Of a stretch of 64,000 bases of DNA, positions 45,587 through 62,278 are shown one piece after another (the first letter of the stretch is position 1; every line of letters begins with the position of its first letter). Below the pieces are notes generated by a model that worked only from the letters and a program-made list of their open reading frames with translations, was not told the origin of the DNA and searched no databases. Origin of the DNA: Nitrosovibrio sp. Nv4 (GTDB lineage: Bacteria; Pseudomonadota; Gammaproteobacteria; Burkholderiales; Nitrosomonadaceae); contig NZ_OCMZ01000002.1 in NCBI RefSeq assembly GCF_900215485.1, positions 744,001 through 808,000 on the forward strand, read 5' to 3'. Both the position numbers and the translations under genes were made by a program.

Positions 45587-45978
45587 TTTAAGCAGAATGA
45601 CCACCATAAGGGATCGAACTGGCGGTTCGCAATTGGCACCTATTCGCACTGGAAACACAACCGTTGGCTGGGAACTGATAGATGGGACATTTACATGAGC
45701 AAGGCCTGAATTTGCAGCGCTGTGCTACGCCTTTTACAAGTGGTCCCGACCAGGTCACTCATGTATCGAGCTGTGATGGCGGCAGACTGCTGTTGCAATC
45801 CAGGGACGGAGCGGAAATTTCCACGTGATGGCTTCGTCAGCAGGCAGATCAACTAAAACTCGAGTAAACGAACCACGCTGGGGATGCTGTTGCGGGAGCG
45901 CTTCTTCGGACAATGGCTGCGGGTACCGCGGGACGCTGTCGCAACAACCTATTCCACATCTTTATCCTGAGGACAGCT

Positions 45979-47286
45979 ATGCAAATACATGACCTGATCG
46001 GTATCGGCTTTGGCCCCTCTAACATTTCGCTCGCAATTACCCTGGAGGAAAAGAAACAGGAAGGATACGAAATAGACGCATTCTTTATCGAGAAGCAACC
46101 AAATTTCGCCTGGCATGCAAACATGATGCTGGATAACACACATATGCAGATATCCTTTCTGAAGGACCTGGCTACCCTGCGCAACCCATCCAGCCATTTC
46201 ACGTTCATCAATTATCTGCACCAGAAGCAGAGGCTCCAGGACTTCATCAACCTCAAGACATTTTTTCCCAGCCGCCACGAGTTCAACGATTACCTTGCCT
46301 GGGCTGCGTCCCACTTCGACGATCGCTGCGCTTATGGTGAAGAAGTGCTGGAAGTGCTGCCGGAAAAACGGAATGACGAAGTAACGCTGCTGCGGGTGCG
46401 TTCGCGCGATTCGCAGGGGGCGATCCGGGAGCGATTCGCACGCAACCTGATCGTCAGCGTGGGGGGAGTGCCCCGTATTCCCGAGTGCTTCCATCATTTG
46501 AGAAATGATGGGCGCATTTTTCATTCGAATAGCTATCTTCGTGAGATCGCCCGGCATGGGAACGCCGAAAAGATAGCGGTTGTCGGCGCGGGGCAAAGCG
46601 CCGCCGAAATCTTCATGGACCTACATAATCGCCCCGACGCCCCCCACGTCGACCTGATCATGCGCGCGCGCGCGATCAAGCCCTCTGATGACAGCCCATT
46701 CGTCAACGAAATTTTCAATGCGGATTTCACCGACTTTATTTTCAGCCGCTCCGAGCCGGACCGTACCGCCTTGCTGGAGGAAGTCTGGCACACCAACTAC
46801 GCCGCGCCCGATCTTGTCCTGATCGAACAAATCTTCAATGCCTTCTACCAGCAAAGGGTTACGGGCGATTTACGCCACCGATTCCTCAGGCGCCATGAAG
46901 TGGGCTCCGTCCGCACTTTACCTGAAGGACGAATCGAGCTGCTCCTTCGCGACCTCAATACGGACCGCGAGTACAACGCTTTGTACGACGTGGTGGTGCT
47001 TGCGACCGGTTACCGACGAGATTATCACAAGTCATTGCTGCGGCCACTTTCACCCTACATGGGCAGCTTCACCGTTGACCGCCACTATCGTTTGAAGAGC
47101 ACACCCAATTTCCATCCGGCTATCTTTCTTCAAGGAGCATGCGAAGAAACTCATGGTTTAAGCGATACGCTGCTTTCGGTGATTGCAGTGAGGACGGATG
47201 AGATAGGCCATGCCCTGTTTGACACGATCGAGCAGAAGGATGTAAGCCAGGCAGGAAGCCAGATACGCGCAGTGGCAAACCAATGA
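45979..47286 (+). CDS. L-ornithine N5-monooxygenase (PvdA/SidA family)
   Basis: This 435-residue flavoprotein hydroxylates the side-chain amine of ornithine (or lysine), the committed step of hydroxamate siderophore synthesis. It shows the FAD motif GIGFGPSN (8-15), the substrate-region WHANMMLDNTHMQISFLKDLATLRNP, the NADPH motif VVGAGQSAAE (about 198-207) and the C-terminal VVVLATGYRRD. The start ATG at 45979 has GAGGA 7 nt upstream; the frame extends 22 codons further without support. With the PvdF-like gene it would supply formyl-hydroxyornithine. The preference for ornithine over lysine is inferred from the PvdA-like sequence and the neighbouring formyltransferase. Confidence 0.93.
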   Translation: MQIHDLIGIGFGPSNISLAITLEEKKQEGYEIDAFFIEKQPNFAWHANMMLDNTHMQISFLKDLATLRNPSSHFTFINYLHQKQRLQDFINLKTFFPSRHEFNDYLAWAASHFDDRCAYGEEVLEVLPEKRNDEVTLLRVRSRDSQGAIRERFARNLIVSVGGVPRIPECFHHLRNDGRIFHSNSYLREIARHGNAEKIAVVGAGQSAAEIFMDLHNRPDAPHVDLIMRARAIKPSDDSPFVNEIFNADFTDFIFSRSEPDRTALLEEVWHTNYAAPDLVLIEQIFNAFYQQRVTGDLRHRFLRRHEVGSVRTLPEGRIELLLRDLNTDREYNALYDVVVLATGYRRDYHKSLLRPLSPYMGSFTVDRHYRLKSTPNFHPAIFLQGACEETHGLSDTLLSVIAVRTDEIGHALFDTIEQKDVSQAGSQIRAVANQ

Positions 47287-47397: not shown

Positions 47398-49767
47398 ATG
47401 AAAGCCTATACAAAAACTATTAAAGGGCGCCGTCCACTTACCCACCGCATCCAACGCACCAAACTCGCAACCGCGCTACAGTACGCCCTCCTCAGCCTGT
47501 CGATGACAGGATATGCTCATGCACAACAGGCTTCTCCAGAACCGGCCAAGGCTGGGCAGTCCGAAAGGAAAATTCTTCCGGGAGAAGGTAGCACCGGGCA
47601 GTCCTCTGCAGAACCATCATCCGAATCGAAAGAAAAAACTTCAGAAGTGAAGGCTGCACCGGTTGCAAAAGATACTCAAACGCCGGCTGAACCGGGCAAG
47701 CAGGGGGAAACTGTCTTGCCAACAATGGTTATCAAGGATACAGGACTTGACAAAGTCGAGTATGGTACGAAAGATACCATGACAGCGACAAAGACGAAGA
47801 CCCCGATTATCGAAATACCCCAGTCGATGACCGTCATTACCCGCGATGAGATGACCATGCGCGGCGTGAACCTCCATTTCACCGAAGCACTGCGTTATAT
47901 ACCGGGCGTAACGGCAGACCAGTTCGGGTTTGATGGACGGGGTTTCGAGTATGTAAGCATGAGGGGCTTCAACTCCCTGAGCACTGCCAACTTCCGGGAT
48001 AATTTAAGCCAGCAGGGAAGAGGGCTCTTTTTCGCCGACTTCATCACCGATCCCTATTCTCTCGAGCGGGTGGATGTATTGCGCGGTCCCACCTCAGTCA
48101 CGTTTGGACGCGGCGATGCCGGAGGTATCGTGAACAGGATAACCAAGCTTCCCACTGCCGCTCCTATCCGCGAGATCGAACTCCAGTACGGCAATTTTGA
48201 CCGCAAGCGAATCGCGGGGGACTTCGGCCTGGCCAATGAAGATGGAACGCTGATGTTCCGGCTTGTGACCTCCGCGCTCGACACGGGTACCCAGCTACGC
48301 TTTGCCAATACAGGAGGAGACCGCGCCCAGATCAGGCGCTTTTACATCTCGCCGTCGCTGACCTGGCGTCCCACCGACAGGACATCCGTCACTCTTTTTG
48401 GTGATATCCTGAATAATCGCAGCGAAGCGTCTGCCTTTTACCAGGCTGCGCCAGATGGCCGCCCGACCAGAACAGTTCTGGGGGTACCCAACTATACGCA
48501 GTTTTCGACCGACCAGGCCTCCTTCAGCTATAAACTTGAGCACCATTTCAATGAAACCTTCACGGCGCGGCAAAACTTCCGTTTCATGCGGCTCGATGGC
48601 AGGTACAGAGACATTAATCCAGCGGGACTTGCCGCAGATGGAACCTTGGGTCGCAGTGCATTCGGTACCCGGGAACGAGTGGATCAAACGGTGCTCGATA
48701 CGCACGTGGAAGCTCGTGCTAACACAGGTCCTTTCAGGCATACGGCTTTGGTTGGAATCGACTGGAACCGCGTCGAATCCACCCTCAAATATTTTAACGC
48801 CAGTGCTCCAACACCCTCCATTAATGTTTTCAATCCCAACTATAACCTGCCAATACCCACACCGGATTCCCTGTTCATCGACGGCGTCCAGAAGATAGAC
48901 CAGGTTGGCTTTTACGTACAGGATCAAATCAAGTTTGATCAGCGCTGGGTTTTAACTCTAAGCGGCCGCCACGACAAGGTGTCGAGCGTTACTGACGTTA
49001 ATATTTTCAACCCGCAGCATACCGCGAGCAAAGATTCAGCGTACACCGGCAGGGCCGGCCTGACCTACCTTTTCTCCAACGGCGTCGCGCCTTATTTCAG
49101 TTATTCGCAATCTTTTCTGCCTCAATATGGGCTCGATTTTTTTAATAACAGTCCCTTCGAACCTACGCGCGCTTCCCAGTATGAAGTGGGCATCAAGTAT
49201 CAGCCTCCCGGCACCAGGAATTTGTTCACGGCAGCGTTGTTCGAGTTGACCAAAACCAACGTTCTGACTCCTGATCCTCGCACACCGCTTGGCTTGTCGG
49301 TAGCAGGTGCGGTTCGCTCCCGGGGCGCGGAACTGGAAGCAAGGACAGAGGTTTTTCGAGGCCTGAATGCGATCGGCGCTTTCAGCTATGTCGACGTCAA
49401 GGTAACCGAAAGTAGCCTTGGTTTTGAAGGTAACATGCCAGTCCGCGTTCCCAATCTGACAACCTCGGGCTGGCTCGATTATAACCTCGGCACGTTGAAT
49501 GTCGACGCGTTGAGAGGATTCTTCATTGGGGGCGGCGTACGCTATGTGGGCAGAGTGTTTAATGATGAGGCAAACACCAGCACTACGCCGTCGTTCACCC
49601 TGTTCGATGCGGTCCTTCGATATGATCACGGCCCCTGGCAGTTTCTCATCAATGCGAATAACATATTTGATGAAAAATACTTTACTGCAGGTCCCGCCTC
49701 AGGCAGCGGGAGCTTCTTCCTGGGGTCGCGACGTACTGTTGTAGGGACATTGAAACTGAGGTTTTGA
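47398..49767 (+). CDS. TonB-dependent siderophore receptor
   Basis: This 789-residue outer-membrane receptor has a long N-terminus with signal peptide (cleavage likely after YAHA, about 42), then an unusual ~70-residue linker rich in Pro, Lys, Glu, Ser and Ala. A TonB-box-like ETVLPTMVI and the plug domain follow (IEIPQSMTVITRDEMTMRG ... LRGPTSVTFGRGDAGGIVN). The 22-strand barrel ends in RRTVVGTLKLRF with the terminal Phe. There is no STN signalling domain, so control by an ECF sigma factor through this protein is unlikely. It follows the N-hydroxylase gene by 111 nt and is the likely uptake receptor for the siderophore of this locus. Confidence 0.95.
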   Translation: MKAYTKTIKGRRPLTHRIQRTKLATALQYALLSLSMTGYAHAQQASPEPAKAGQSERKILPGEGSTGQSSAEPSSESKEKTSEVKAAPVAKDTQTPAEPGKQGETVLPTMVIKDTGLDKVEYGTKDTMTATKTKTPIIEIPQSMTVITRDEMTMRGVNLHFTEALRYIPGVTADQFGFDGRGFEYVSMRGFNSLSTANFRDNLSQQGRGLFFADFITDPYSLERVDVLRGPTSVTFGRGDAGGIVNRITKLPTAAPIREIELQYGNFDRKRIAGDFGLANEDGTLMFRLVTSALDTGTQLRFANTGGDRAQIRRFYISPSLTWRPTDRTSVTLFGDILNNRSEASAFYQAAPDGRPTRTVLGVPNYTQFSTDQASFSYKLEHHFNETFTARQNFRFMRLDGRYRDINPAGLAADGTLGRSAFGTRERVDQTVLDTHVEARANTGPFRHTALVGIDWNRVESTLKYFNASAPTPSINVFNPNYNLPIPTPDSLFIDGVQKIDQVGFYVQDQIKFDQRWVLTLSGRHDKVSSVTDVNIFNPQHTASKDSAYTGRAGLTYLFSNGVAPYFSYSQSFLPQYGLDFFNNSPFEPTRASQYEVGIKYQPPGTRNLFTAALFELTKTNVLTPDPRTPLGLSVAGAVRSRGAELEARTEVFRGLNAIGAFSYVDVKVTESSLGFEGNMPVRVPNLTTSGWLDYNLGTLNVDALRGFFIGGGVRYVGRVFNDEANTSTTPSFTLFDAVLRYDHGPWQFLINANNIFDEKYFTAGPASGSGSFFLGSRRTVVGTLKLRF

Positions 49768-50107: not shown

Positions 50108-53100
50108 TCAGAGCGCCATCTCTGTCTCCATTGGTGTGGGAAGCGAATCTTCCAATGCAGACTCGACCCCTAGCAGCAAGGCGTTATGACGCACAATGGC
50201 GAAATGATCAGTATCCACTTCGATCGATTGCAATTTATCCTGGTCTATTTGCGAGGCAAGTGCCAGCCGATCCGACGATGTACGTTCCGCCGCCCACCAG
50301 CAAACAGGTTGCACTTGTAGAGGATTTAGGGCTTCCGCCTGCCAGGCAAGGGCTTTCAATCGACGCGTTACAATAAAAATTTGCGCCAACTGCTCTGCTC
50401 CCATATCAGCATAGCCAGGAGTCCGCGCACCTCTTGTCTGCTCGCGTTTACGCATCTGCTCGGCTGAAATCAAATGTTCCAGCACGCTAATAATCGTCTT
50501 CTCCGATTCCACGCCCCACAACGCGGCGTTCATGACGTCTCCCGTCTCGCTGCCCGGAATGACCACCGAAAGAAAATCCAGAAAATCCGCTTGCCAATCA
50601 TCGTTGCCTCGCTCCGCATTACCAGGAATAAATGGATCAACCAGGCCGAGGAATGAGACTGATTGCGCATCCGCCTCAAGGAAAGCCGCTATCATGGCTG
50701 CAAGGGCACCGCCCAGGGACCAGCCTAGCAGGTGGTATGGACCTTCAGGCTGAACGCGTCGAATGCTTTGACAATAATCGGCCGCCATCCGATCGAGAGA
50801 AATGTCACGGTGTGCGGGATCAGTAAGCATACGGGAGGGTAGCCCATAAACATTCCACTTTCCCTGTAAATGCCGTGCTAATGGCTGGTAGTCAAATACT
50901 GTGCCTGATCCTCCATGGACGCAGAATAACGATCTGGTTTCTGTTTTCTTATGAGAAAGGTTCAATGTCAAGGGCATGTATGGCCCGTTTTGATTTTGCG
51001 GTTCCAACTGGAGCAATGTGGCAATGGTAGGCCGCTCCATCAGATCACGAATTTTGAAGTTGAATTTGATGCTTCCCAGACTGCTCATTCGTGACATTAC
51101 TTTCAGGCACAATAACGAATCTCCTCCCAGAGCGAAAAAATTGTCCGTTTCCCCTACTCGCTCTATGCCTAGAACTTCCTGCCAGATTTCAGCCAACAAC
51201 CTGCCTTCCTCAGTGGATGGAGGTACATAGGTTCCCATCTCAGTATAATCGGAGTCAGGTAAGGCCTTGCGGTCCACCTTGCCGCTCGGGTTGAGAGGCA
51301 GACTCTCCAGCACTATAATCGCGGAAGGAAGCATGTAGTCAGGCAAAGCCTTGGCCAGGGCTTCGCGCAGTCGCGCAACCTCCAATTCCGCACCCGTGTG
51401 GAAGGAAACATAGGCAATGAGCCTTGCTCCGCCTGTTGCACCTTGCCCTTCCCGCGCAACCACCACCGCTTCCCTGACTTCAGGCTGAGCCAGCAATTGC
51501 GTTTCAATCTCGCCCAGCTCGATCCGGAATCCCCGTATCTTGACCTGATGATCCAGCCGTCCCAGGTATTCGATCTGTCCATCCGCGCGCCATCTTGCCA
51601 AATCTCCTGTGCGGTAGAGACGCCCTCCTCTCTCATCGAAGGGATCAGCAATGAAACGTTCCGCTGTCAGCCCGCCGCGGTTGAGATAGCCGCGTGCCAA
51701 CCCAGTGCCGCCAAGATACAGCTCTCCAGCCACCCCCTGAGGAACCGGACTGAGGTTCGCGTCAAGGATGTACGCTGTCCTGTCGCCGACAGGACTGCCG
51801 ATCGGCAGGTAGGCGCACTCGAAGCGCGTTCCGGGATAAGCTTTTGAAATGAGCGGTGTGATAACGGCTTCCGTCGGCCCATATCCGTTGATGATACGGG
51901 GAGGTTGCAGCGTCTCCTGGATGAATTCGAAGCTCGCCCGACTCGTCGCTTCCCCACCTACGATATAGAAACGGATCGGCAGATTTCGACCCGCACTACC
52001 CATCAGTTCGGCAAGCTGATGCAGATAGCTCGGCATGAAACAGGCGATGGTGATGCCATGCCTTGCGATTTCGGCAGCCGTCCGGTCCACGGGCCAAAGC
52101 TCGTTATCGCGCGGCATCAGGCCCGAGCCGAAAGCCAGGGGGACCAGCGAGCGCTCGTGCGCGCCGTCGAAATTGATCGAGGCAAATTGCAGCTCCCGGT
52201 CAGCCGGGCCCATGCCATAAGCTTCGCCTATCGCCTGGACATGCATTGCGAGAGGGCCATGCGCCACGCCCACGCCTTTTGGTTTTCCGGTGGAGCCGGA
52301 GGTATAGATGACATAGGCGAGGTTTTCACCATGCAGGCAGACTTGTGGGTTCCCCTCAGGCTCATCCTCGAGATCGAGCACATCCAGTTCCAGCACCTGG
52401 CACTTGGACGGATGCGGAATGCGGGATTGAATATGGCTTTGCGTCAAGAGCAGTTCAATGGCGCTGTCCGCTACCATGTGGGCTAGCCGCTCCTGCGGAT
52501 ACTCGGGATCCAGCGGGACATACGCGCCGCCTGATTTCAGGACGGCAAGCAGCCCAACCACCATGTCGATGGAGCGCTCCACCGCAATGCCCACCCTGGT
52601 CTCGGGCTCAACCCCTAATCCAATCAGCCGGTGCGCCAGCCGGTTCGCCCGCCGATTCAACTCGGCATAGCTCAGTTCGGTATCGCCAAAAATCAGCGCA
52701 ACTCCTTCCGGCCGCGCTTCTACCTGCCGCTCGATCAGCCTGTGTACAGGTTCTGTATCCCCATAACGCTTTTCATTGATGCCCCAGGCCTTAAACTGCG
52801 CACGCTCGCCTTCACCCAGTATGTCAATGTCGCCCAGACGCTTCGCAGAGCCAGTCAAACCATCCGCAATCTCCCCCAGCAACTTGATAACATGCGTAGC
52901 GATAGAACTTACCAAATCCGCGGAAAAATGGTTGGTAGCGTAAATATATTCCAGGTATAGAGTATCGCTTTGCATCACCGATACGGTTATCGGATAATTT
53001 GTCGCCTCCCTGCTTCTGACTTCCGAGAAGGCAAGCCCCCCGCGGGCGGATTGCTGCAAGACCTCGTCTATTGGATAGTTCTCGAACACCAGAATGGTGT

Positions 53101-56100
53101 CGAATAATCCCTGACCGCTTTGCCCCAGCCAGCGCTGGATTTCGTACAAGGGTGTATGCTCGTGTTCTCGGGAGGCGAGATTCTGCGCTTGCAGATCGCG
53201 CAACCAGCCACCTATCTCTTGCTCCGGCTTAAGCATAACGACCACTGGCAGCGTATTGATGAATAGCCCAAGCGTGCGCTCCGCTCCCGCCAAATCTGCA
53301 GGTCTACCAGCCACGGTAGCGCCAAAGACAACAATTTGTTTCCCGGTATACCGATTAAGCAAAATTGCCCAGACTGCTTGTATCAGGGTGTTGAGCGTAA
53401 CGCGTTCGCGCCTTGCGAACTGAATTAACCTTTCGGTAAGAGCCGGCTCCAGTTCACTGATATGCTTCCCATGGCTCGAATCATCGGGAAGCACAGGTAC
53501 CAAGCCGGCCAATCGGGTCGCCTCGATGCCATCCAGCCGCTCCCTCCAGTATGCTTCCGACGCCTTCGTATCGCGGCCCAGGAACCATTCGATAAAACTC
53601 CTGTAGCGGAGCCGGCTTCCGGATTCCGGTGCCGGCAGGGCGTTGCCTCCATGTTGCCGGACGACTTCCCCCATCAGTTGTGCGATGCTCCACCCATCAA
53701 GCAGCAGGTGATGGACCGTCCAGATGAGGTGATATCTATCCTCCGCCAACCGCACAAGCGTGAGGCGCATAAGCGGCGGCTTCGCAAGATCAAAACCTGA
53801 AGCGTGCTCTGATTGCGCCAGTTCATCAAGTTCACGCTCCTGGTCCTCACGTACGTATTCAGCCTGATGAGACCAGTCGTATACTCTAAACGGCAACCCG
53901 ACGGACTTGGCAACCCATTGCAAGGGTTTGCCATCCTGAACGACAAAACCTGTACGTAATACTTCATGACGCTCCAATGCCGTCTGCCATGCCGACTTGA
54001 ATCGTGCTACGTCCAAACCCTCGATGTCAGCTCTCAACTGGTTAAGATAAACGCCGCTGTTCATATCCAGTACGGCGTGGAACAGCATCCCCGTTTGCAT
54101 CGGAGAAAGCGGATAAAGGTCTTCAAGTTGCGCCGGGGGTATCCGCAAACCGTCCAGCTCCTGCTGGGTGATGCCCGCCAGGGGAAAATCCGATGGGGTA
54201 ACATTGTGGATACCGCTGGTGCAATGGGCAATCAGCGTTTCAAGCTCGGTGCGGTAGACGTTGATAAGCGCTTCGATAGTGCGCTTGTGGTAGCGCCTCT
54301 CGCTATAGCTTACCGTGAGCCATAGTTCACCCTGGTACACATGCCCGTTTATGGAAATATCGTGACTGAGGGGCGCATTTTCAGCGGTCAAATCCCCTAC
54401 CGGCTCGGTCGCCAACGTCCACAGGGCACTTTCGTCAAAACTCGCATCGAGTTGCCCCAGGTAGTTGAACACGATTTCAGGTTTAGGCAGCGACGTCATG
54501 GCTTCACGCTGTTCGGGTGTTCCATGGTATTTGAGCAGCCCGTAGCCCAGTCCTTTATTCGGAATTCTCCGCAGGTTTTCCTTGATGCACTTGATTCTCT
54601 TATCCAGATCGCCGGATGGATCGAGCATCACTGGATAGAGGCTGGTAAACCAGCCGACCGTTTGCGAAAGGTCGATATCGTATAAATCTTCCCGTCCATG
54701 GCCTTCCAGGTCAATCAGAATTCTCTTGCGGCCACTCCACCGGCAGAGGGCGCTTCCCAACGCGGTGAGCAAAAGGTCATTCACCTGGGTACGATACGCT
54801 GCGGGCGCCTGCTTAAGCAAGGCCAGGGTCTGCGCGCGGCCTAGCTTAAGTATTGCACTGGACTGATGGCGAGCGGTGCTGGCGCCATAGGGATTGTCGC
54901 AAGGCAGCGTGACGGGCACCCCCGCCAACGCCCGCCAGTAAACCAACTCTTCTGCATGTTCGCACGCGTAAGCCTGCAGTCGCCGGGTCCAGTCCTCATA
55001 GCTTTCGGTTTTTTCCGGTAGAGTAATCGGATTGCTGCCGCGGGCCTGACTGTAAACACTCTGCAAATCTTCGAGCAGGACGCGCCAGGAAACGCCGTCG
55101 ATCACGAGGTGATGGATGACCAACAGCAAGCGTTGACTACCATCCGCCATATGGACAAGCAAGGCACGCAGCAGCAGGCCTTCTGCGAGATTCAGGCTCC
55201 GCTGGGCCTCGTTGCATAACGCTTCCAGCTCCTTTTCAGTCCCAGCCTTCCGGACCCGCAGCAAATCACCTGGAACCGATTTCCCACAAAACTGCTGCCA
55301 GTCGCCACTCGCATTTTTCACATAGCGAAAGCGAAGCGCCTCATGATGATGTACCACGGCTTCCAATGCTTGTGCAAGATTGACAGGGTCTAAAGGCTCT
55401 CGGCTTTTCAGCAATGCGACCTGGTTCCAGTGATGTCGTGCTGGAATTTTCTGTTCAAAGAATTCAGCCTGAATAGGGAGCAGCGGTATGAAGCCATCCC
55501 TGGTTCCTTTATTCCTGTCTGCATTTATTCCTTCCTTCGATGTCACAACCGAGGCTACATTTGGGTTTGGGTTTGCGGTTGCAGTTGCCAATGATGCCTT
55601 GAGCGATGTCGTGACGCTCGCGAGCTCCGCGACGGTCTGCCGTTCGAACAGTTGGCGGGGTGTGATCTTCCAGCCGGCCCGCCGTGCTTTGGTGACAATC
55701 TGAAGGCTGAGAATGGAATCTCCCCCCAGTTCAAAGAAATTGTCGTGCCGTCCCACCCGTCCCACTCCCAGCACCTGCCCCCAGATGCCAGCCAGCACTT
55801 CCTCCACTTCTCCTTGCGGCACTTCATAATTATCCGTATTGGCGAATTCCGGCTCAGGCAGGGCCTTGCGGTCCACCTTGCCGCTCGGGTTGAGAGGCAG
55901 ACTCTCCAGCACTATAATCGCGGAAGGAAGCATGTAGTCAGGCAAAGCCTTGGCCAGGGCTTCGCGCAGTCGCGCAACCTCCAATTCCGCACCCGTGTGG
56001 AAGGAAACATAGGCAATGAGCCTTGCTCCGCCTGTTGCACCTTGCCCTTCCCGCGCAACCACCACCGCTTCCCTGACTTCAGGCTGAGCCAGCAATTGCG

Positions 56101-58873
56101 TTTCAATCTCGCCCAGCTCGATCCGGAATCCCCGTATCTTGACCTGATGATCCAGCCGTCCCAGGTATTCGATCTGTCCATCCGCGCGCCATCTTGCCAA
56201 ATCTCCTGTGCGGTAGAGACGCCCTCCTCTCTCATCGAAGGGATCAGCAATGAAACGTTCCGCTGTCAGCCCGCCGCGGTTGAGATAGCCGCGTGCCAAC
56301 CCAGTGCCGCCAAGATACAGCTCTCCAGCCACCCCCTGAGGAACCGGACTGAGGTTCGCGTCAAGGATGTACGCTGTCCTGTCGCCGACAGGACTGCCGA
56401 TCGGCAGGTAGGCGCACTCGAAGCGCGTTCCGGGATAAGCTTTTGAAATGAGCGGTGTGATAACGGCTTCCGTCGGCCCATATCCGTTGATGATACGGGG
56501 AGGTTGCAGCGTCTCCTGGATGAATTCGAAGCTCGCCCGACTCGTCGCTTCCCCACCTACGATATAGAAACGGATCGGCAGATTTCGACCCGCACTACCC
56601 ATCAGTTCGGCAAGCTGATGCAGATAGCTCGGCATGAAACAGGCGATGGTGATGCCATGCCTTGCGATTTCGGCAGCCGTCCGGTCCACGGGCCAAAGCT
56701 CGTTATCGCGCGGCATCAGGCCCGAGCCGAAAGCCAGGGGGACCAGCGAGCGCTCGTGCGCGCCGTCGAAATTGATCGAGGCAAATTGCAGCTCCCGGTC
56801 AGCCGGGCCCATGCCATAAGCTTCGCCTATCGCCTGGACATGCATTGCGAGAGGGCCATGCGCCACGCCCACGCCTTTTGGTTTTCCGGTGGAGCCGGAG
56901 GTATAGATGACATAGGCGAGGTTTTCACCATGCAGGCAGACTTGTGGGTTCCCCTCAGGCTCATCCTCGAGATCGAGCACATCCAGTTCCAGCACCTGGC
57001 ACTTGGACGGATGCGGAATGCGGGATTGAATATGGCTTTGCGTCAAGAGCAGTTCAATGGCGCTGTCCGCTACCATGTGGGCTAGCCGCTCCTGCGGATA
57101 CTCGGGATCCAGCGGGACATACGCGCCGCCTGATTTCAGGACGGCAAGCAGCCCAACCACCATGTCGATGGAGCGCTCCACCGCAATGCCCACCCTGGTC
57201 TCGGGCTCAACCCCTAATCCAATCAGCCGGTGCGCCAGCCGGTTCGCCCGCCGATTCAACTCGGCATAGCTCAGTTCGGTATCGCCAAAAATCAGCGCAA
57301 CTCCTTCCGGCCGCGCTTCTACCTGCCGCTCGATCAGCCTGTGTACAGGTTCTGTATCCCCATAACGCTTTTCATTGATGCCCCAGGCCTTAAACTGCGC
57401 ACGCTCGCCTTCACCCAGTATGTCAATGTCGCCAAGGCTCTGTTCAGGGTGCTCGGCCAGTTGCTGCAGAAGATGAAGGTAATGCCCGCCCAGCCGCTCG
57501 ATGGTGGCAGACTCAAACAGCTCAGACGCATAGGTGAAGGTCGCCTCTAACCTTCCGTCCGGCTGCTCAGCAGTGTCCAGGGTCAATTCGAACTGGGCCG
57601 CCTGCTCACTCAGTTCATGATTTTCCACCGTAAGTCCGGGCAATTGCTCAAGCGCCCGGTAGTCTTCGCGCAAGTGGTTGTACATTACCTGGAACAGCGG
57701 ATTCTGATTCAGGTTGCGTTCAGGCTGCAGTGCTTCAACCAGTTGTTCGAACGGCAGGTCCTGATGGGTCTGGGCGCCAAGCGCGGCTTCACGGGCCTGA
57801 TCGAGAATGGCCCTGAGCGGCATGCGCCCGTCAATATGGTTGCGCAATACCTGCGTGTTTACGAAGAAACCAACTATGTTTTCTATTTCAACCCGGTGGC
57901 GGTTGGCAATCGGCACGCCCACACGGATATCCTGCTGCCCGGTATAGCGGTGCAGCAAGGCCTGGAAACCCGCCAGCAATACCATGAAGAGAGTTGCCCC
58001 CTGGCTTTGGGCCTGGCGCTGCAAGCGTGTAACCAGACCGGCCGGTAGCGTAAACGTATGGCGTGCAGCCCGGTAGTTGGCGTTGGATGGCCGCGGGTAA
58101 TCGGTGGGAATCTGTAGTACCGGATGTTCTTCCCCTAACTGGCTGCGCCAATAGGCAAGCTGGCGCTCTTTTTCTCCCGCTTCCAGCCAGTTGCGTTGCC
58201 ATATCGCATAATCGGCGTACTGGATCGGCAGCGCCGGTAAAGAAGGTTCTCGTCCGTTAATTCGTGCTCTGTACTGGACGGCAAATTCGTCAATGACGAT
58301 GCGATTGGACCAGGCATCCGATATGATGTGGTGCATCACCACCACAAGAAGGTGTTCTTCCGGTGCTATCCGGATAAGGGCTAGCCTGAGCAGCGGACCG
58401 TGTGTCAGGTCAAATGGGGTGGCGCTTATCCGGCTGGCTTGTTCGTGCGCCCGTGCCGCGCCTTGCTCCCTCGGCAGACTGGAGAAGTCAATCAGCGGAA
58501 TATCGAGCTTGGGTTCGTCTTCAATGATCTGCTCGGGCAGCCCTTCCGCATTGGCACAGAATACCGTGCGTAGCGATTCATGCCGCCTTCTCAATGCCTC
58601 AAAACTCGAACGCAACGCGTCAATATCCAGCTTCCCCACCAGCCGCAATCCACCGCTCAGGTGATAAGCCGTACCCAAGGGCTCCAACTGCCATAAAAAC
58701 CAGTGACGCTGCTGCGCATAGGAGAGAACCCGCCGGTTTCCCGCTTTTTGCGGGACAATGGGAAGAAGAGAAAAATCGAATCCCCGTTTTTTCAGCGCGC
58801 TCAGGAATTCTTTCTGCTTCTCCGGAGCAAGGGCCGCAAACCGCTCGGCAATATCCTGCTTGTTCAATTCCAT
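50108..58873 (-). CDS. Nonribosomal peptide synthetase, C-A-T-E-C-A-T-TE
   Basis: This 2,921-residue synthetase holds two modules and the release domain. Order with rough positions: C1 (40-475; HHIISDAW near 172), A1 (480-1004), T1 (GGDS near 1053), epimerase (about 1100-1530; HHLVIDG, EGHGRE, FNYLGQLD), C2 (about 1550-2005; HHLLLDGW near 1722, of the type accepting a D-residue), A2 (2013-2537), T2 (GGDS near 2586), thioesterase (GWSLGG near 2719). A1 and A2 have the same sequence; the specificity code I read is D-G-E-C-I-G-G-I-T-K. The start follows the preceding NRPS stop directly. It should add two identical residues, the first turned to D, and release the product. An MbtH-like partner is not seen in the window. 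Confidence 0.95.
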   Translation of the reverse strand: MELNKQDIAERFAALAPEKQKEFLSALKKRGFDFSLLPIVPQKAGNRRVLSYAQQRHWFLWQLEPLGTAYHLSGGLRLVGKLDIDALRSSFEALRRRHESLRTVFCANAEGLPEQIIEDEPKLDIPLIDFSSLPREQGAARAHEQASRISATPFDLTHGPLLRLALIRIAPEEHLLVVVMHHIISDAWSNRIVIDEFAVQYRARINGREPSLPALPIQYADYAIWQRNWLEAGEKERQLAYWRSQLGEEHPVLQIPTDYPRPSNANYRAARHTFTLPAGLVTRLQRQAQSQGATLFMVLLAGFQALLHRYTGQQDIRVGVPIANRHRVEIENIVGFFVNTQVLRNHIDGRMPLRAILDQAREAALGAQTHQDLPFEQLVEALQPERNLNQNPLFQVMYNHLREDYRALEQLPGLTVENHELSEQAAQFELTLDTAEQPDGRLEATFTYASELFESATIERLGGHYLHLLQQLAEHPEQSLGDIDILGEGERAQFKAWGINEKRYGDTEPVHRLIERQVEARPEGVALIFGDTELSYAELNRRANRLAHRLIGLGVEPETRVGIAVERSIDMVVGLLAVLKSGGAYVPLDPEYPQERLAHMVADSAIELLLTQSHIQSRIPHPSKCQVLELDVLDLEDEPEGNPQVCLHGENLAYVIYTSGSTGKPKGVGVAHGPLAMHVQAIGEAYGMGPADRELQFASINFDGAHERSLVPLAFGSGLMPRDNELWPVDRTAAEIARHGITIACFMPSYLHQLAELMGSAGRNLPIRFYIVGGEATSRASFEFIQETLQPPRIINGYGPTEAVITPLISKAYPGTRFECAYLPIGSPVGDRTAYILDANLSPVPQGVAGELYLGGTGLARGYLNRGGLTAERFIADPFDERGGRLYRTGDLARWRADGQIEYLGRLDHQVKIRGFRIELGEIETQLLAQPEVREAVVVAREGQGATGGARLIAYVSFHTGAELEVARLREALAKALPDYMLPSAIIVLESLPLNPSGKVDRKALPEPEFANTDNYEVPQGEVEEVLAGIWGQVLGVGRVGRHDNFFELGGDSILSLQIVTKARRAGWKITPRQLFERQTVAELASVTTSLKASLATATANPNPNVASVVTSKEGINADRNKGTRDGFIPLLPIQAEFFEQKIPARHHWNQVALLKSREPLDPVNLAQALEAVVHHHEALRFRYVKNASGDWQQFCGKSVPGDLLRVRKAGTEKELEALCNEAQRSLNLAEGLLLRALLVHMADGSQRLLLVIHHLVIDGVSWRVLLEDLQSVYSQARGSNPITLPEKTESYEDWTRRLQAYACEHAEELVYWRALAGVPVTLPCDNPYGASTARHQSSAILKLGRAQTLALLKQAPAAYRTQVNDLLLTALGSALCRWSGRKRILIDLEGHGREDLYDIDLSQTVGWFTSLYPVMLDPSGDLDKRIKCIKENLRRIPNKGLGYGLLKYHGTPEQREAMTSLPKPEIVFNYLGQLDASFDESALWTLATEPVGDLTAENAPLSHDISINGHVYQGELWLTVSYSERRYHKRTIEALINVYRTELETLIAHCTSGIHNVTPSDFPLAGITQQELDGLRIPPAQLEDLYPLSPMQTGMLFHAVLDMNSGVYLNQLRADIEGLDVARFKSAWQTALERHEVLRTGFVVQDGKPLQWVAKSVGLPFRVYDWSHQAEYVREDQERELDELAQSEHASGFDLAKPPLMRLTLVRLAEDRYHLIWTVHHLLLDGWSIAQLMGEVVRQHGGNALPAPESGSRLRYRSFIEWFLGRDTKASEAYWRERLDGIEATRLAGLVPVLPDDSSHGKHISELEPALTERLIQFARRERVTLNTLIQAVWAILLNRYTGKQIVVFGATVAGRPADLAGAERTLGLFINTLPVVVMLKPEQEIGGWLRDLQAQNLASREHEHTPLYEIQRWLGQSGQGLFDTILVFENYPIDEVLQQSARGGLAFSEVRSREATNYPITVSVMQSDTLYLEYIYATNHFSADLVSSIATHVIKLLGEIADGLTGSAKRLGDIDILGEGERAQFKAWGINEKRYGDTEPVHRLIERQVEARPEGVALIFGDTELSYAELNRRANRLAHRLIGLGVEPETRVGIAVERSIDMVVGLLAVLKSGGAYVPLDPEYPQERLAHMVADSAIELLLTQSHIQSRIPHPSKCQVLELDVLDLEDEPEGNPQVCLHGENLAYVIYTSGSTGKPKGVGVAHGPLAMHVQAIGEAYGMGPADRELQFASINFDGAHERSLVPLAFGSGLMPRDNELWPVDRTAAEIARHGITIACFMPSYLHQLAELMGSAGRNLPIRFYIVGGEATSRASFEFIQETLQPPRIINGYGPTEAVITPLISKAYPGTRFECAYLPIGSPVGDRTAYILDANLSPVPQGVAGELYLGGTGLARGYLNRGGLTAERFIADPFDERGGRLYRTGDLARWRADGQIEYLGRLDHQVKIRGFRIELGEIETQLLAQPEVREAVVVAREGQGATGGARLIAYVSFHTGAELEVARLREALAKALPDYMLPSAIIVLESLPLNPSGKVDRKALPDSDYTEMGTYVPPSTEEGRLLAEIWQEVLGIERVGETDNFFALGGDSLLCLKVMSRMSSLGSIKFNFKIRDLMERPTIATLLQLEPQNQNGPYMPLTLNLSHKKTETRSLFCVHGGSGTVFDYQPLARHLQGKWNVYGLPSRMLTDPAHRDISLDRMAADYCQSIRRVQPEGPYHLLGWSLGGALAAMIAAFLEADAQSVSFLGLVDPFIPGNAERGNDDWQADFLDFLSVVIPGSETGDVMNAALWGVESEKTIISVLEHLISAEQMRKREQTRGARTPGYADMGAEQLAQIFIVTRRLKALAWQAEALNPLQVQPVCWWAAERTSSDRLALASQIDQDKLQSIEVDTDHFAIVRHNALLLGVESALEDSLPTPMETEMAL
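51263..52834 (-). repeat. A-domain direct repeat, copy 1 (in module A2)
   Basis: This 1,572-bp stretch is matched base for base, wherever I compared it, by 55862-57433, with an offset of 4,599 bp (1,533 codons, in frame). It covers the adenylation domain from the C-A linker (DIDILGEGERAQFKAWG) through the A10 lysine motif (NPSGKVDRKALP). Outside these limits the two copies diverge at once. Confidence 0.93.
55862..57433 (-). repeat. A-domain direct repeat, copy 2 (in module A1)
   Basis: This is the partner of the repeat at 51263-52834. The limits are sharp: at the left the bases at 55861 and 51262 differ, and at the right those at 57434 and 52835 differ. Encoding the whole A1 domain, it shows that both modules of this synthetase activate the same amino acid. 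Confidence 0.93.
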
Positions 58874-61800
58874 TCAGCTCTCCAGTAAATCGAGTAATTC
58901 CGACATCCCCAGCAGCTCAGCATGTTCGGCAGATTCATCCGATATTAAAGAACGTTTCTCCCCTACGGCCGCGGCAATATCTTTCAGCACGGGATTTTCG
59001 AAATGCAGGCGCAAAGGCAGTGAAACGGATAATGCCTGTTGCACCTTCTGTTGAACTTGCAGGATCGCAAGCGAGTGGCCGCCCAGTTCGAAGAAATTAT
59101 CATTTCGCCCGACTTGCACAGTGCCAAGCACTTCAGCCCAGATGCCAGCCAGCGCTTCTTCCATTTCATCCTGGGGCGCCTCATAACTGTCGAAATTGCC
59201 GATATTGGCAAATTCAGGTTCCGGCAGCGCCTTGCGGTCGACCTTGCCGTTGGGATTGAGCGGCAGGCTTTCCAGCACCACGATCGCCGAAGGAATCATG
59301 TAATCGGGTAGCGCCTTGCATATGGCACCACGCAAGGCGACAGCGTCCGCCCCAGTACCGGCATGCAGGGATACGTAGGCCACAAGCCTTGCACCCCCTG
59401 TGCCCCCTGTTCCATTGAGCCATTCCCCGGCAATGACAACAGCTTCTCTCACCTCGGGCCGCGCGAGCAGCTGGGCTTCGATTTCGCCCAGCTCTATGCG
59501 AAAGCCCCGCACCTTGACCTGGTGATCCAGACGCCCCAGATACTCGATCTGCCCATCTGCGCGCCATCTCGCAAGGTCTCCGGTACGGTACAGCCGCCCT
59601 CCCCGCTCATCAAAGGGATCGGCTATGAAACGCTCCGCGGTCATACCTCCTTTATTGAGATAACCCCGCGCCAACAGATCTCCTCCGATGCATAGCTCGC
59701 CTGGAATTCCAGGTGCGACAGGAGCGAGATTTGCATCAAGCAGATGGATACGGCGTGCTGCGAGTGGCCTTCCGATAGACACTTGTGCAGGTATCGCGCC
59801 CTCATCCACTTGGTAATCGCTGCAATCCGATACGGTAGCTGTCACGATTGCTTCGGTCGGTCCATAGGTATTCAACAGGGTAACAGCGCCAAGTCCCGCC
59901 CGATGCCAGGCTTTGATACCTTCTGGCGACATGGCTTCCCCGCCCGCGTGAACCTGCCGCAGCAAGCCATAGTTCCGCGATCCATACCTTGCGAAATCCT
60001 GCACCAGCAGAAACCAGTACGCCGTAGTCAGATCGGCCACGGTTATCCGTTTATCGATCAGCTCACGGTAGAAGGTTTCGCTATCCCATAACATGGGACC
60101 TCGCAAGACGATGGCCGCGCCCATGGACAAGGGCGGAAAAAGCTGCTCGATAAAACCGTCAAAGTTGATGGTGGAAAACTGCAGCATTCGATCCATTGGA
60201 GTCAGGCCAAAGAAGTCGACCGCTATCTGGGCATGTTCGGCCAGGGCATGATGAGGCACGCCCACGCCTTTTGGATTTCCGGTAGAGCCGGAGGTATAGA
60301 TGACATAGGCGAGATTATCCCCATGCAGGCGTACCGCAGGGTTATAGTCCGGCTCGCCGCCCAGCTCCAGCGTATCCAGCTCCAACACAGTGCATCCCCC
60401 GGAATGCGGTATCCGCGCCCGAAGATGGCTTTGTGTCAGCAGCAGTCCAATGACGCTGTCCGACACCATGTAATTCAGGCGCTCCTGCGGATACTCGGGA
60501 TCCAGCGGCACATAAGCGCCACCGGCCTTCAGTATCGCCAGCAGGCCCACGATCATGTCGATGGAGCGTTCCACCGCCATGCCCACCCCGGTCTCCGCCT
60601 CAACGCCAAGCGCAATCAACCGGTGCGCCAGCCGGTTTGAGCGCTGGTTCAACTCGGCATAGCTCAGTTCGGCATCCCCAAAGATCAGTGCGGTCGCTTC
60701 GGGGTGCGCTTCCACCTGACGCTCGATCAGCCTGTGTACAGGCTCGGCATCGGCGTAGCGCTTCTCGTTGATGCCCCACACCCTGAGCTGTGAGTGCTCG
60801 GCCTCATTAAGAATGTCAATGTCGCCCAGGCTGCGTTCGGGATGCTCGGCCAGTTGCCGAAGGAGATGAAGATAATGCTCGCCCAGTCGTCTGATGGTGC
60901 CCGGCTCGAACAACTCGGGGGCATAGGTCAAGGTCGCCTCAAGCTGGCCGTCCGGCTGCTCGACAGTGTCCAGGGTTAATTCGAACTGGGCCGTCTGCTC
61001 ACCCAGTTCATGGTTCTCCACCATGAGTCCGGGTAACTGCTCCAGCGCGCGGTAGTCCTCGCGCAGGTGGTTGTACATGACCTGAAACAGCGGGTTCTGA
61101 TTCAGGTTGCGTTCAGGCTGCAGCGCTTCGACCAGTTGCTCGAATGGTAGGTCCTGATGGGTCTGGGCGCCAAGCGCCGCTTCGCGGGTCTGATCGAGAA
61201 TGGCCCTGAGCGGCATGTGCCCCTCGATACGGTTGCGCAGCACCTGGGTATTTATGAAGAAGCCGACGATATTTTCTATTTCAACCCGATGGCGGTTCGT
61301 TATCGGTACGCCGACGCGAATATCCTCTTGTCCGGTATAGCGTTGCAGCAGAGCCTGGAAGCCCGCCAGCAATGCCATGAAGAGGGTCGCACCCTGGCTC
61401 TGGGCTTGGCGCTGCAGGCGAACAACCAGCGAGACTGGTAACACAAAAGCATGGCGTGCGGCGCGATAATCCGCTTTGGATGGCCGGGGATAATCGGTGG
61501 GAAGCTGCAATACCGGGTGTTCTTGTCCCAATTGATTGCGCCAGTAGGCCAGTTGCCTCTCTTTTTCTCCCGCTTCCAGCCAGTTGCGCTGCCATATCGC
61601 ATAATCGGCATACTGAATTGGAAGGGGGGTAAGAGAAGGTTCCTGCCCCTGTCTTCCCTGCCCTGCTTTTGCGCGGTATCCGGCGGCAAACTCGTCAATG
61701 ACGATGCGATTGGACCAGGCGTCCGATATGATGTGATGCATTACCACGACGAGCAGGTGCTCTTCCGGCGCAACCCGGATGAGTACGACCCGCAGCAGCG

Positions 61801-62278
61801 GACCTTGTGTGAGATCAAACGGCGTGGCGCTTATCCGGCTGGCTTCCGCATGCGCGCGCGCCGTCCGTTGCCCAGCAGGCACATCGGAGAGGTCAATTAC
61901 CGGAATATCCAGCTTACCTGCCGCCGCAATGATCTGCTCGGGCAGCCCTTCCGCATTGGCCCGGAAACTTGTGCGCAGCGATTCGTGCCGCGCGACCAGC
62001 GCCTGAAAGCTCGAACGCAGGGCTTCCATATCCAGCTTACCGGCCAAACGCAATCCGCCGCTCAGGTGATACGCCGTGCTCAACGGCTCCAGCTGCCATA
62101 AAAACCAGTGACGCTGCTGCGCGTAAGAGAGCGGCGCCGGTCCCGAGGATTCCCTGCGAGAAATGGTTAGTTCCTGCCGGACCGAAGAACTGCCAACTGC
62201 CAGGCGCTGTGCCAGCCTGTCCCGCTGCTCGGGAGTCAGGCGCGAACGCCTTTGCGCGAGATCGCTGCTATTCAACAT
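58874..62278 (-). CDS. Nonribosomal peptide synthetase, single module C-A-T
   Basis: This 1,134-residue synthetase has a condensation domain (about 50-485; HHIISDAW), an adenylation domain (about 510-1010; YTSGSTGNPKG, NTYGPTEA, GRLYRTGD, GKVDRKALP) and a carrier domain with the phosphopantetheine serine at about 1069 in ELGGHSLAIL. There is no epimerase. The specificity code read by alignment to GrsA is D-G-E-D-V-A-T-V-T-K; the acidic residues at positions 239 and 278 suggest a basic or hydroxamate side chain, but this is tentative. Its flanks resemble those of the next protein's A domains while the substrate-binding core differs. AGGA precedes the start codon; the PKS stop is 81 nt upstream. 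It adds the first amino acid to the polyketide or acyl starter. Confidence 0.94.
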   Translation of the reverse strand: MLNSSDLAQRRSRLTPEQRDRLAQRLAVGSSSVRQELTISRRESSGPAPLSYAQQRHWFLWQLEPLSTAYHLSGGLRLAGKLDMEALRSSFQALVARHESLRTSFRANAEGLPEQIIAAAGKLDIPVIDLSDVPAGQRTARAHAEASRISATPFDLTQGPLLRVVLIRVAPEEHLLVVVMHHIISDAWSNRIVIDEFAAGYRAKAGQGRQGQEPSLTPLPIQYADYAIWQRNWLEAGEKERQLAYWRNQLGQEHPVLQLPTDYPRPSKADYRAARHAFVLPVSLVVRLQRQAQSQGATLFMALLAGFQALLQRYTGQEDIRVGVPITNRHRVEIENIVGFFINTQVLRNRIEGHMPLRAILDQTREAALGAQTHQDLPFEQLVEALQPERNLNQNPLFQVMYNHLREDYRALEQLPGLMVENHELGEQTAQFELTLDTVEQPDGQLEATLTYAPELFEPGTIRRLGEHYLHLLRQLAEHPERSLGDIDILNEAEHSQLRVWGINEKRYADAEPVHRLIERQVEAHPEATALIFGDAELSYAELNQRSNRLAHRLIALGVEAETGVGMAVERSIDMIVGLLAILKAGGAYVPLDPEYPQERLNYMVSDSVIGLLLTQSHLRARIPHSGGCTVLELDTLELGGEPDYNPAVRLHGDNLAYVIYTSGSTGNPKGVGVPHHALAEHAQIAVDFFGLTPMDRMLQFSTINFDGFIEQLFPPLSMGAAIVLRGPMLWDSETFYRELIDKRITVADLTTAYWFLLVQDFARYGSRNYGLLRQVHAGGEAMSPEGIKAWHRAGLGAVTLLNTYGPTEAIVTATVSDCSDYQVDEGAIPAQVSIGRPLAARRIHLLDANLAPVAPGIPGELCIGGDLLARGYLNKGGMTAERFIADPFDERGGRLYRTGDLARWRADGQIEYLGRLDHQVKVRGFRIELGEIEAQLLARPEVREAVVIAGEWLNGTGGTGGARLVAYVSLHAGTGADAVALRGAICKALPDYMIPSAIVVLESLPLNPNGKVDRKALPEPEFANIGNFDSYEAPQDEMEEALAGIWAEVLGTVQVGRNDNFFELGGHSLAILQVQQKVQQALSVSLPLRLHFENPVLKDIAAAVGEKRSLISDESAEHAELLGMSELLDLLES

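What the first reader, a model, noticed from the sequence alone, without database searches (positions are those of the whole stretch)
51263..57433. Two adenylation domains of one NRPS carried on an apparently perfect 1,572-bp in-frame direct repeat
The copies at 51263-52834 and 55862-57433 match wherever compared, with sharp ends in the C-A linker and just after the A10 lysine, while the flanking C, T, E and TE domains are unrelated. This marks a recent A-domain transplant or ongoing gene conversion, with natural breakpoints that define an A-domain exchange unit. Both modules must activate the same residue.
Basis: seen in the sequence. Interest (0 to 1): 0.8.

Follow-up and report, generated by a model that had tools for sequence, protein, structure and literature searches.

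The report
Twin siderophore-synthetase domains kept identical
Two building-block-selecting domains of one siderophore-making enzyme in an ammonia-oxidising bacterium are letter-for-letter identical, most likely because the cell keeps copying one over the other; a sister species shows the same, and the process is of a kind known from other peptide synthetases.

Summary
The reading as a recent A-domain transplant needs correcting.

A sister species (Nitrosovibrio sp. Nv6) carries the same pair, identical over 1583 bp, yet differs from ours at 52 of 1572 positions; all 52 differences occur in both copies. So the copies evolve in concert, best explained by gene conversion in both lineages.

The two ends have different origins. 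The 5' end (C-A linker) is a boundary also seen in six congeners. The 3' end is a fusion point: 17 of the 19 genomes of the genus that hold the terminal T-TE have an extra T-C-A block there, missing in the other two, the window's genome and its sister. The terminal module carries module 2's pocket, one letter from a published code for N-modified ornithine.

Exact tracts of 0.5-2 kb recur between other module pairs in relatives; 7 of 10 module-1/2 tracts end at the P-loop before the pocket. Closest precedent: microcystin mcyB1/mcyC. A clean new case of a known process.

The parts
55862..57433 (-). Repeat copy 1: C-A linker end plus complete A domain of module 2 (C-A-T-E)
   Evidence: Identical to copy 2 over 1572 bp; AMP-binding domain; full-length counterpart of A2 in 8 of 9 other genomes, the pocket of G014 being the exception
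51263..52834 (-). Repeat copy 2: A domain of the terminal module (C-A-T-TE), here called A3*
   Evidence: the 8 relatives with full genes hold other pockets in the A3 position
52834..52835 (-). 5' junction of copy 2 (C-A linker, LGDIDIL)
   Evidence: Similarity between A2 and A3 begins at or within a few codons of this point in each of the six congeners shown (G001, G007, G012, G014, G017, G022)
51262..51263 (-). 3' junction of copy 2: fusion of A10 (GKVDRKALP) to the T-TE of the former module 4
   Evidence: Downstream T is of the M4 type (FFALGGDS...), and 17 of the 19 genomes of the genus with the terminal T-TE keep an intervening block
50108..58873 (-). NRPS gene, 2921 aa, C-A-T-E-C-A-T-TE
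58874..62278 (-). Upstream NRPS gene, module 1, C-A-T (code DGEDHGTVTK)
55619..55798 (-). T domain of module 2
   Evidence: Pfam PP-binding at aa 1026-1085
54164..55486 (-). Epimerisation domain of module 2 (approximate limits)
   Evidence: One of the three Pfam Condensation stretches; labelled E from recalled motifs and its place after T; orthologous in relatives
52844..54151 (-). C domain of the terminal module, orthologous to C3 of the relatives (approximate limits)
   Evidence: Contiguous match of the T-E-C segment in relatives
50282..50932 (-). Terminal thioesterase (approximate limits), orthologous to the M4 TE of the relatives
   Evidence: Pfam Thioesterase and Abhydrolase_6; T-TE found in 19 of 23 genomes of the genus, the window's included
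62360..64000 (-). PKS gene end: KR and carrier domain (KS and AT lie outside the window)
45913..47286 (+). L-lysine/L-ornithine N-monooxygenase (hydroxamate former)
   Evidence: Pfam PF13434, E 6.8e-126
44185..45093 (+). Formyltransferase-like protein
   Evidence: Pfam PF00551 just above cutoff, 26.7 versus 26.1 bits; TIGR00639 far below its cutoff; weak
47398..49767 (+). TonB-dependent siderophore receptor
   Evidence: TIGR01783 above cutoff
42337..44010 (-). Cyclic-peptide export ABC transporter
   Evidence: TIGR01194 above cutoff

Best explanation
The perfect repeat is a pair of A domains kept identical by gene conversion (concerted evolution) inside a lipopeptide hydroxamate-siderophore NRPS of a Nitrosospira/Nitrosovibrio ammonia oxidiser. 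The ancestral gene had three modules here: C-A2-T-E, C-A3-T and C-A4-T-TE (inferred from the relatives). In the common ancestor of the window's genome and Nitrosovibrio sp. Nv6 a homologous recombination removed the T3-C4-A4 block (event inferred; shown: the block is absent in both and present in the other 17 genomes of the genus that hold the terminal T-TE). The terminal module then carried module 2's A domain, pocket included, either in the same event or by later conversion (order not shown). Because A2 and A4 both carry codes of the N-modified-ornithine type, the terminal iron-binding residue would be kept while the variable M3 residue is dropped (inferred). Since the species split, conversion has copied one domain over the other in each lineage (inferred from the 52 shared differences). 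The tract ends where homology drops: unlike C domains on one side at the linker, T2 versus T4 after A10.
For: Exact identity. Sister genome: the same pair identical over 1583 bp; 52 of 1572 positions differ between species, identically in both copies (524 of 524 codons show the same pattern), with 0 differences between the copies inside the 1572-bp tract in either genome; third-position divergence in the tract (7.25%) is like that of the flanks (7.35-10.4%). If the pair predates the split and no conversion followed, about 52 within-genome differences are expected; Poisson P(0) is 2.6e-23, and, on a clock, homogenisation falls within roughly the last 6% of the split time (95% bound). Two-module versus three-module gene: 2 of 19 versus 17 of 19 genomes of the genus with the terminal T-TE. 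Donor: G000's A2 matches the A2 of 8 of 9 other genomes over all three parts (pocket identity 70-98%; G014, with a Ser-type pocket, 38%); the A3 pockets of the 8 relatives with full genes match at only 39-48%. Exact tracts of 564-1982 bp join other module pairs in 5 other genomes of the same cluster (G007, G012, G017, G022, G033). Own C-domain paralogue closer than the best orthologue among the set in 5 of 8 genomes. Siderophore context; DGECTGGITK named in a passage on N-modified-ornithine codes.
Against: No raw reads. Only two genomes carry the state, so independent parallel copying after the split cannot be separated from ancestral copying plus conversion (both need conversion-like transfer). 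In the window's genome the M1/M2 C domains are not homogenised (79.7%; own paralogue loses in 3 of 8 genomes: G000, G020, G001), so conversion is patchy. The C-terminal part of A sorts by code rather than by species (20 species changes, 7 code changes), and even the N part needs 14 species changes against a minimum of 9. Whole-A identity is not general: within-genome A2/A3 pockets of the 8 relatives with full genes are 38-49% identical. G036 shows no exact repeat of 40 bp or more in the stretch taken; nor do the fragments of G004, G005 and G015. The substrate is predicted from codes only.
Confidence: 0.85

Rival explanations
1. One recent A-domain transplant (module 2 into the terminal module) in this genome alone, not followed by conversion.
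For: Zero differences in 1572 bp; module 2 is the likely donor.
Against: The sister species has the same junctions and its own identical pair, with 52 species differences shared by both copies.
Confidence: 0.04
2. Independent copying of A2 over the terminal A domain in each species after the split, on an inherited two-module gene; parallel replacement rather than continuous homogenisation.
For: Predicts the same 52-of-52 pattern; multiple recent independent A-domain overwriting events are proposed for mcyB1/mcyC (PMC2174460 passages).
Against: Needs the same whole-domain event twice. It differs from the best explanation only in the number and timing of events.
Confidence: 0.08
3. Assembly artefact: one real A domain duplicated, or two diverged domains forced to one consensus.
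For: No reads seen; in 11 of 19 genomes of the genus the gene is interrupted by a contig end or an N run in this region, so assemblers do struggle here.
Against: The same pair in a second named genome with 52 consistent differences; distinct flanks on both copies, all in frame; exact tracts also in single-contig assemblies G022 and G033.
Confidence: 0.03

Closest known systems
mcyB1/mcyC adenylation-domain replacement in microcystin synthetase (PMC2174460, 2007; passages seen)
   Same: Within-strain overwriting of one A domain by another of the same assembly line; very low divergence of the A domains relative to their C domains in some strains; the authors speak of sequence homogenization; breakpoints span A1-A10 into T, or A2-A10, or only A3-A8.
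   Different: Different genes and product; the passages seen describe no module loss coupled to the copied domain and no sister-species test like the 52 shared differences here.
Concerted evolution of NRPS/PKS domains (PMC4256081, 2014; passages seen)
   Same: Gene conversion homogenises domains within one cluster; stated for A and most C domains of calcium-dependent lipopeptide clusters. [quoted passage not shown]
   Different: For the NRPS cases in the passages seen it is inferred from cluster-specific branching; here from exact tracts with end points.
A-core subdomain swapping (PMC8097286, 2021; PMC9205934, 2022; PMC7486941, 2020; passages seen)
   Same: Pockets are exchanged while flanking parts stay; hotspots between C and A and on both sides of the pocket; linker plus A domain works as an engineered unit.
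Module deletion in NRPS evolution (microcystin to nodularin, cited in PMC8097286; passage seen)
   Same: Loss of modules shortens the product.
   Different: Here the fused module carries a copy of another module's A domain.

Membership tests
Concerted evolution by gene conversion of NRPS domains | Paralogous copies within a genome more alike than orthologous copies between species | tested here: met
   0 versus 52 differences in 1572 bp
Concerted evolution by gene conversion of NRPS domains | Species-specific variants present in both copies | tested here: met
   52 of 52 positions
Concerted evolution by gene conversion of NRPS domains | Recurs in other lineages | tested here: met
   Other exact tracts in 5 other genomes of the cluster; of the 80 named loci kept (of 199 relatives), 9 of 15 from Nitrosomonas/Nitrosospira/Nitrosovibrio and 0 of 65 others hold an exact direct repeat of 500 bp or more; lengths unequal, loci not independent
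Concerted evolution by gene conversion of NRPS domains | Dependence on homologous recombination (RecA) | not testable with these tools
   Needs experiment
A-core subdomain (pocket) swapping | Pocket phylogeny follows substrate code, not species or position | tested here: met
   Middle segment, 28 A domains counted: 7 code changes (minimum for 8 codes), 22 species changes, 10 position changes; quick tree with long branches
A-core subdomain (pocket) swapping | Native C-A linker and Asub kept in the exchanged module | tested here: not met
   In the window's pair the linker end and Asub are included in the identical tract
Hydroxamate lipopeptide siderophore NRPS | N-monooxygenase, TonB siderophore receptor and peptide exporter next to the NRPS; fatty-acyl-AMP-ligase-like loading domain | tested here: met
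   the ligase label rests on NCBIfam hits below their cutoffs
Hydroxamate lipopeptide siderophore NRPS | Product binds iron through N-modified ornithine | not testable with these tools
   Codes only

The most novel reading that the evidence does not exclude
In this siderophore assembly line of Nitrosomonadaceae, conversion continually homogenises the frame around the pocket (C domain to the P-loop, and in some species from just after the pocket through T into E) but is stopped at the pocket unless two pockets already match. This keeps modules interchangeable, so pockets hop between positions and modules can be lost without breaking the line: a standing diversification engine of which the window's perfect repeat is the pocket-matched case.
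Probability: 0.4. Interest if true: 0.62.

Novelty: new member of a known kind. Interest (0 to 1): 0.48.

Why it matters
NRPS engineers look for natural domain borders that work. This gene family offers a natural series: a 5' border in the C-A linker seen in several congeners, a natural T-C-A deletion that left a functional-looking fusion at A10, and pockets that sit at different positions in different species of one genus. It also shows that identity between two A domains need not mean a recent graft: it can be upkeep, so dating such events by similarity misleads. For ammonia oxidisers it points to a quickly diversifying siderophore; judged from listings and abstracts, my two searches for it showed no paper on this cluster in a library that holds open-licence papers only.

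Tried and rejected
Rejected: a single recent transplant (sister species). Rejected: the 3' end as a plain graft border (it is the T-C-A deletion point). Not supported: homogenisation of both A-domain flanks genus-wide; the C-terminal segment sorts by code, and in the window's genome the M1/M2 C domains are not homogenised. Not decidable: one event or two for module loss plus pocket copying.

Led nowhere: literature searches for Nitrosospira with NRPS and siderophore gave no paper that looked, from listings and abstracts, to be on this cluster. Of five codes searched, one paper was found; it holds DGEDHGTVVK, DGEDHGTVTK and DGECTGGITK but not DGEAVGGVTK or DGECIGGITK. The passages of PMC2533009 added nothing used here. 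The PDB sequence search gave ordinary A-domain relatives, and its five printed alignments did not include 1AMU, so code positions rest on recalled motif spacing. No structure prediction was run.

Caveats on counts: trees are quick ones with several long branches, from 36 A domains of 10 genomes (8 of the genus, 2 of another genus of the family); fragmentary genomes were left out, and the 8 A4 rows were left out of the change counts. In one search I placed 10 tracts of the siderophore cluster and 7 of the 9 named loci with tracts of 500 bp or more (L093 and L094 are G020 and G017 again); tracts of other NRPS genes (G006, G009, G010, G011, G021, G049) were not placed. N runs in G003 and G008 may be assembly gaps or withheld stretches; their repeat lists are flooded by those N runs and were not used. 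In one search locus lengths vary from 3 to 23 kb, and the 80 loci are the best of 199. One search listed 20 of 50 papers.

Full report
Observation. Window 51263-52834 and 55862-57433 are identical over all 1572 bases, 4599 bases apart, and the next base differs at each end. Both lie in frame in one minus-strand gene (58873..50108, 2921 aa) with domains C-A-T-E-C-A-T-TE; E versus C labels rest on position and recalled motifs, since Pfam calls all three Condensation. The tract encodes 524 residues from GDIDIL in the C-A linker to GKVDRKA at A10. It occurs exactly twice in the 3.27-Mb genome. The claim that all flanking domains are unrelated is slightly overstated: the T domains are homologous, 93 of 180 nt next to the tract being identical.

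Where it is. So the window is from this group of ammonia oxidisers; its own species name was not given. Around the gene lie an ornithine/lysine N-monooxygenase, a weak formyltransferase match, a TonB siderophore receptor, a cyclic-peptide exporter, module 1 (C-A-T), a PKS, and a 1766-aa protein with two AMP-binding domains, the first resembling fatty-acyl-AMP ligases. This is the set-up of a hydroxamate lipopeptide siderophore (inference).

Concerted evolution. In the sister genome the same two modules hold copies identical to each other over 1583 bp. Between the species the tract differs at 52 of 1572 positions (3.3%), each difference being present in both copies: all 524 codons show the same pattern at both places. 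Flanks differ by 4.6-5.9%; third positions differ by 7.25% in the tract and by 7.35-10.4% in the flanks, so the tract itself is not frozen. If the pair had simply been inherited, each genome should show about 52 differences between its copies; none is seen inside the 1572-bp tract (Poisson P 2.6e-23; on a clock, homogenised within about the last 6% of the split time, 95% bound). One copy has overwritten the other in both lineages.

The two ends. 5' end: in the six congeners compared (G001, G007, G012, G014, G017, G022) the similarity between A2 and A3 begins at or within a few codons of LGDIDIL, often in a wording particular to the species; in G033 and G036, of another genus, the A2 and A3 linkers are not homogenised. 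3' end: 19 of 23 genomes of the genus, the window's included, have the terminal T-TE at E 1e-40 or better. Two of the 19 (window genome and Nv6) have the two-module gene. The other 17 have a further block: six in full-length genes C-A-T-E-C-A-T-C-A-T-TE and eleven in fragments, of which five show A-T-C-A-T-TE (two of them with more upstream), five T-C-A-T-TE and one (G015) only C-A-T-TE; all eleven carry the A4-type code. In the two-module gene the terminal C is the orthologue of C3 and the terminal T-TE that of module 4. Hence a T3-C4-A4 block is missing, and the 3' end of the repeat is the fusion point, within GKVDRKALP.

Pockets. Codes (positions by recalled motif spacing): A2 is DGECIGGITK in the window genome and Nv6, DGECTGGITK in 7 of the other 8 genomes, and Ser-like DVWHISLIDK in G014. 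A3 varies (DGEDHGTVTK in 5, DVWHISLIDK in 2, DADDNGVVTK in 1 of 8 full genes; in fragments also DILQLGMIWK and DSDDHGLVTK, with two A domains unreadable through N runs). A4 is DGEAVGGVTK in 8 of 8 full genes and in 10 of 11 fragments (DGEVVGGVTK in G018). A 2025 survey names DGECTGGITK, with DGEACGGVTK and DGEGSGGVTK, in its passage on codes that accept N-modified ornithine, as codes not readily told apart, and DGEDHGTVTK as derived from ornithine-activating domains (PMC12283262, passages and section 11; its tables were not seen). So A2 and A4 probably choose the same kind of iron-binding residue, and copying A2 into the fused terminal module would keep two hydroxamates while dropping the variable M3 residue. 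This is inference from codes.

Wider pattern. In the same cluster of five other genomes exact tracts join other pairs: G007 1727, G012 up to 1982, G017 1829, G022 1874, G033 1569 bp; between A2 and A3 of G001 and G014 the longest are 395 and 366 bp. Placed on the domains, ten tracts lie in the C domain and first part of A of the M1/M2 type: 7 of 10 (G012, G017, G022 and Nitrosomonas loci L101, L102, L121, L126) end at or just before the P-loop (SGSTGKPKG), G007 and G033 end some 45 residues earlier, and L105 ends within C. In L096 and L104 a tract begins just downstream of the pocket and runs through T into E. Tracts cross the pocket in the window genome, in Nv6 and in one G012 pair. Own C-domain paralogue beats the best orthologue in 5 of 8 genomes; it does not in the window genome, Nv6 and G001. 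In trees of 36 A domains from 10 genomes, with the 8 A4 rows not counted, the N part needs 14 species, 16 position and 14 code changes (minimum for species 9); the pocket 22 species, 10 position and 7 code changes (7 is the minimum for 8 codes); and the C part 20, 11 and 7. So the N part is partly homogenised within genomes, while the pocket, mostly together with the C part, travels by code. Among the 80 named loci kept of 199, 9 of 15 from Nitrosomonas/Nitrosospira/Nitrosovibrio and 0 of 65 others have an exact direct repeat of 500 bp or more (unequal lengths, not independent, and L093 and L094 are G020 and G017 again).

Artefact check. No reads. In 11 of the 19 genomes the gene is interrupted by a contig end or N run between A2 and T3 (G002, G003, G004, G005, G008, G009, G013, G015, G016, G018, G019), as expected if long identical repeats defeat short-read assembly; 8 of 19 run through. 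Single-contig genomes (G022, G033) show exact tracts too.

Known or new. Overwriting and homogenisation of A domains within one synthetase is known for mcyB1/mcyC (PMC2174460, passages), and concerted evolution of NRPS/PKS domains is stated in PMC4256081 (passages). Pocket swapping and linker hotspots are known (PMC8097286, PMC9205934, PMC7486941; passages). Gene conversion as a route to a new A specificity is named for McyA2 (PMC3640908, passages). What is added here is an unusually clean sister-species test, the pairing of module loss with a copied A domain, and tracts that mostly stop before the pocket. Searches for gene conversion, concerted evolution or homogenisation in NRPS showed, by titles and abstracts listed, no such case for nitrifiers; one search listed 20 of 50 papers, and the library is open-licence only.

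Noticed in passing
L063 (G012:C1:1684659-1688071): G012 has an extra C-A-T module before module 1, split over two overlapping reading frames (possible frameshift), with a 1982-bp exact tract shared with the next module.
   Followed up: partly
L096 8380-10278 and L104 72-1638: Nitrosomonas ureae Nm13 and N. halophila Nm1 carry 1.6-1.9-kb exact tracts beginning just after the pocket and running through T into E, a different unit from that of the window.
   Followed up: partly
L091 (G049:C1:280127-286677): A genome of the same order has an NRPS with two consecutive stretches of about 3.3 kb sharing exact pieces of 740, 1231 and 1201 bp, nearly whole modules.
   Followed up: no
L080, L087, L088, L089, L090: A different NRPS in G009, G010, G011, G006 and G021 (open frames of 3461-4929 aa in the stretches taken) also has internal exact repeats, the longest 449-994 bp.
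   Followed up: no
L198 and L072 (G003:C14:72410-73076, G008:C14:590287-591015): Runs of N of 667 and 729 bases lie inside an A domain of the orthologous gene (assembly gap or withheld stretch). In G003 the domains go from C-A across the N run to A-T-C-A-T-TE with no E segment, as if two A domains had been collapsed into one.
   Followed up: partly
window 36394-37566: A DDE transposase gene with a DUF4372 domain lies a few kilobases from the siderophore cluster.
   Followed up: no
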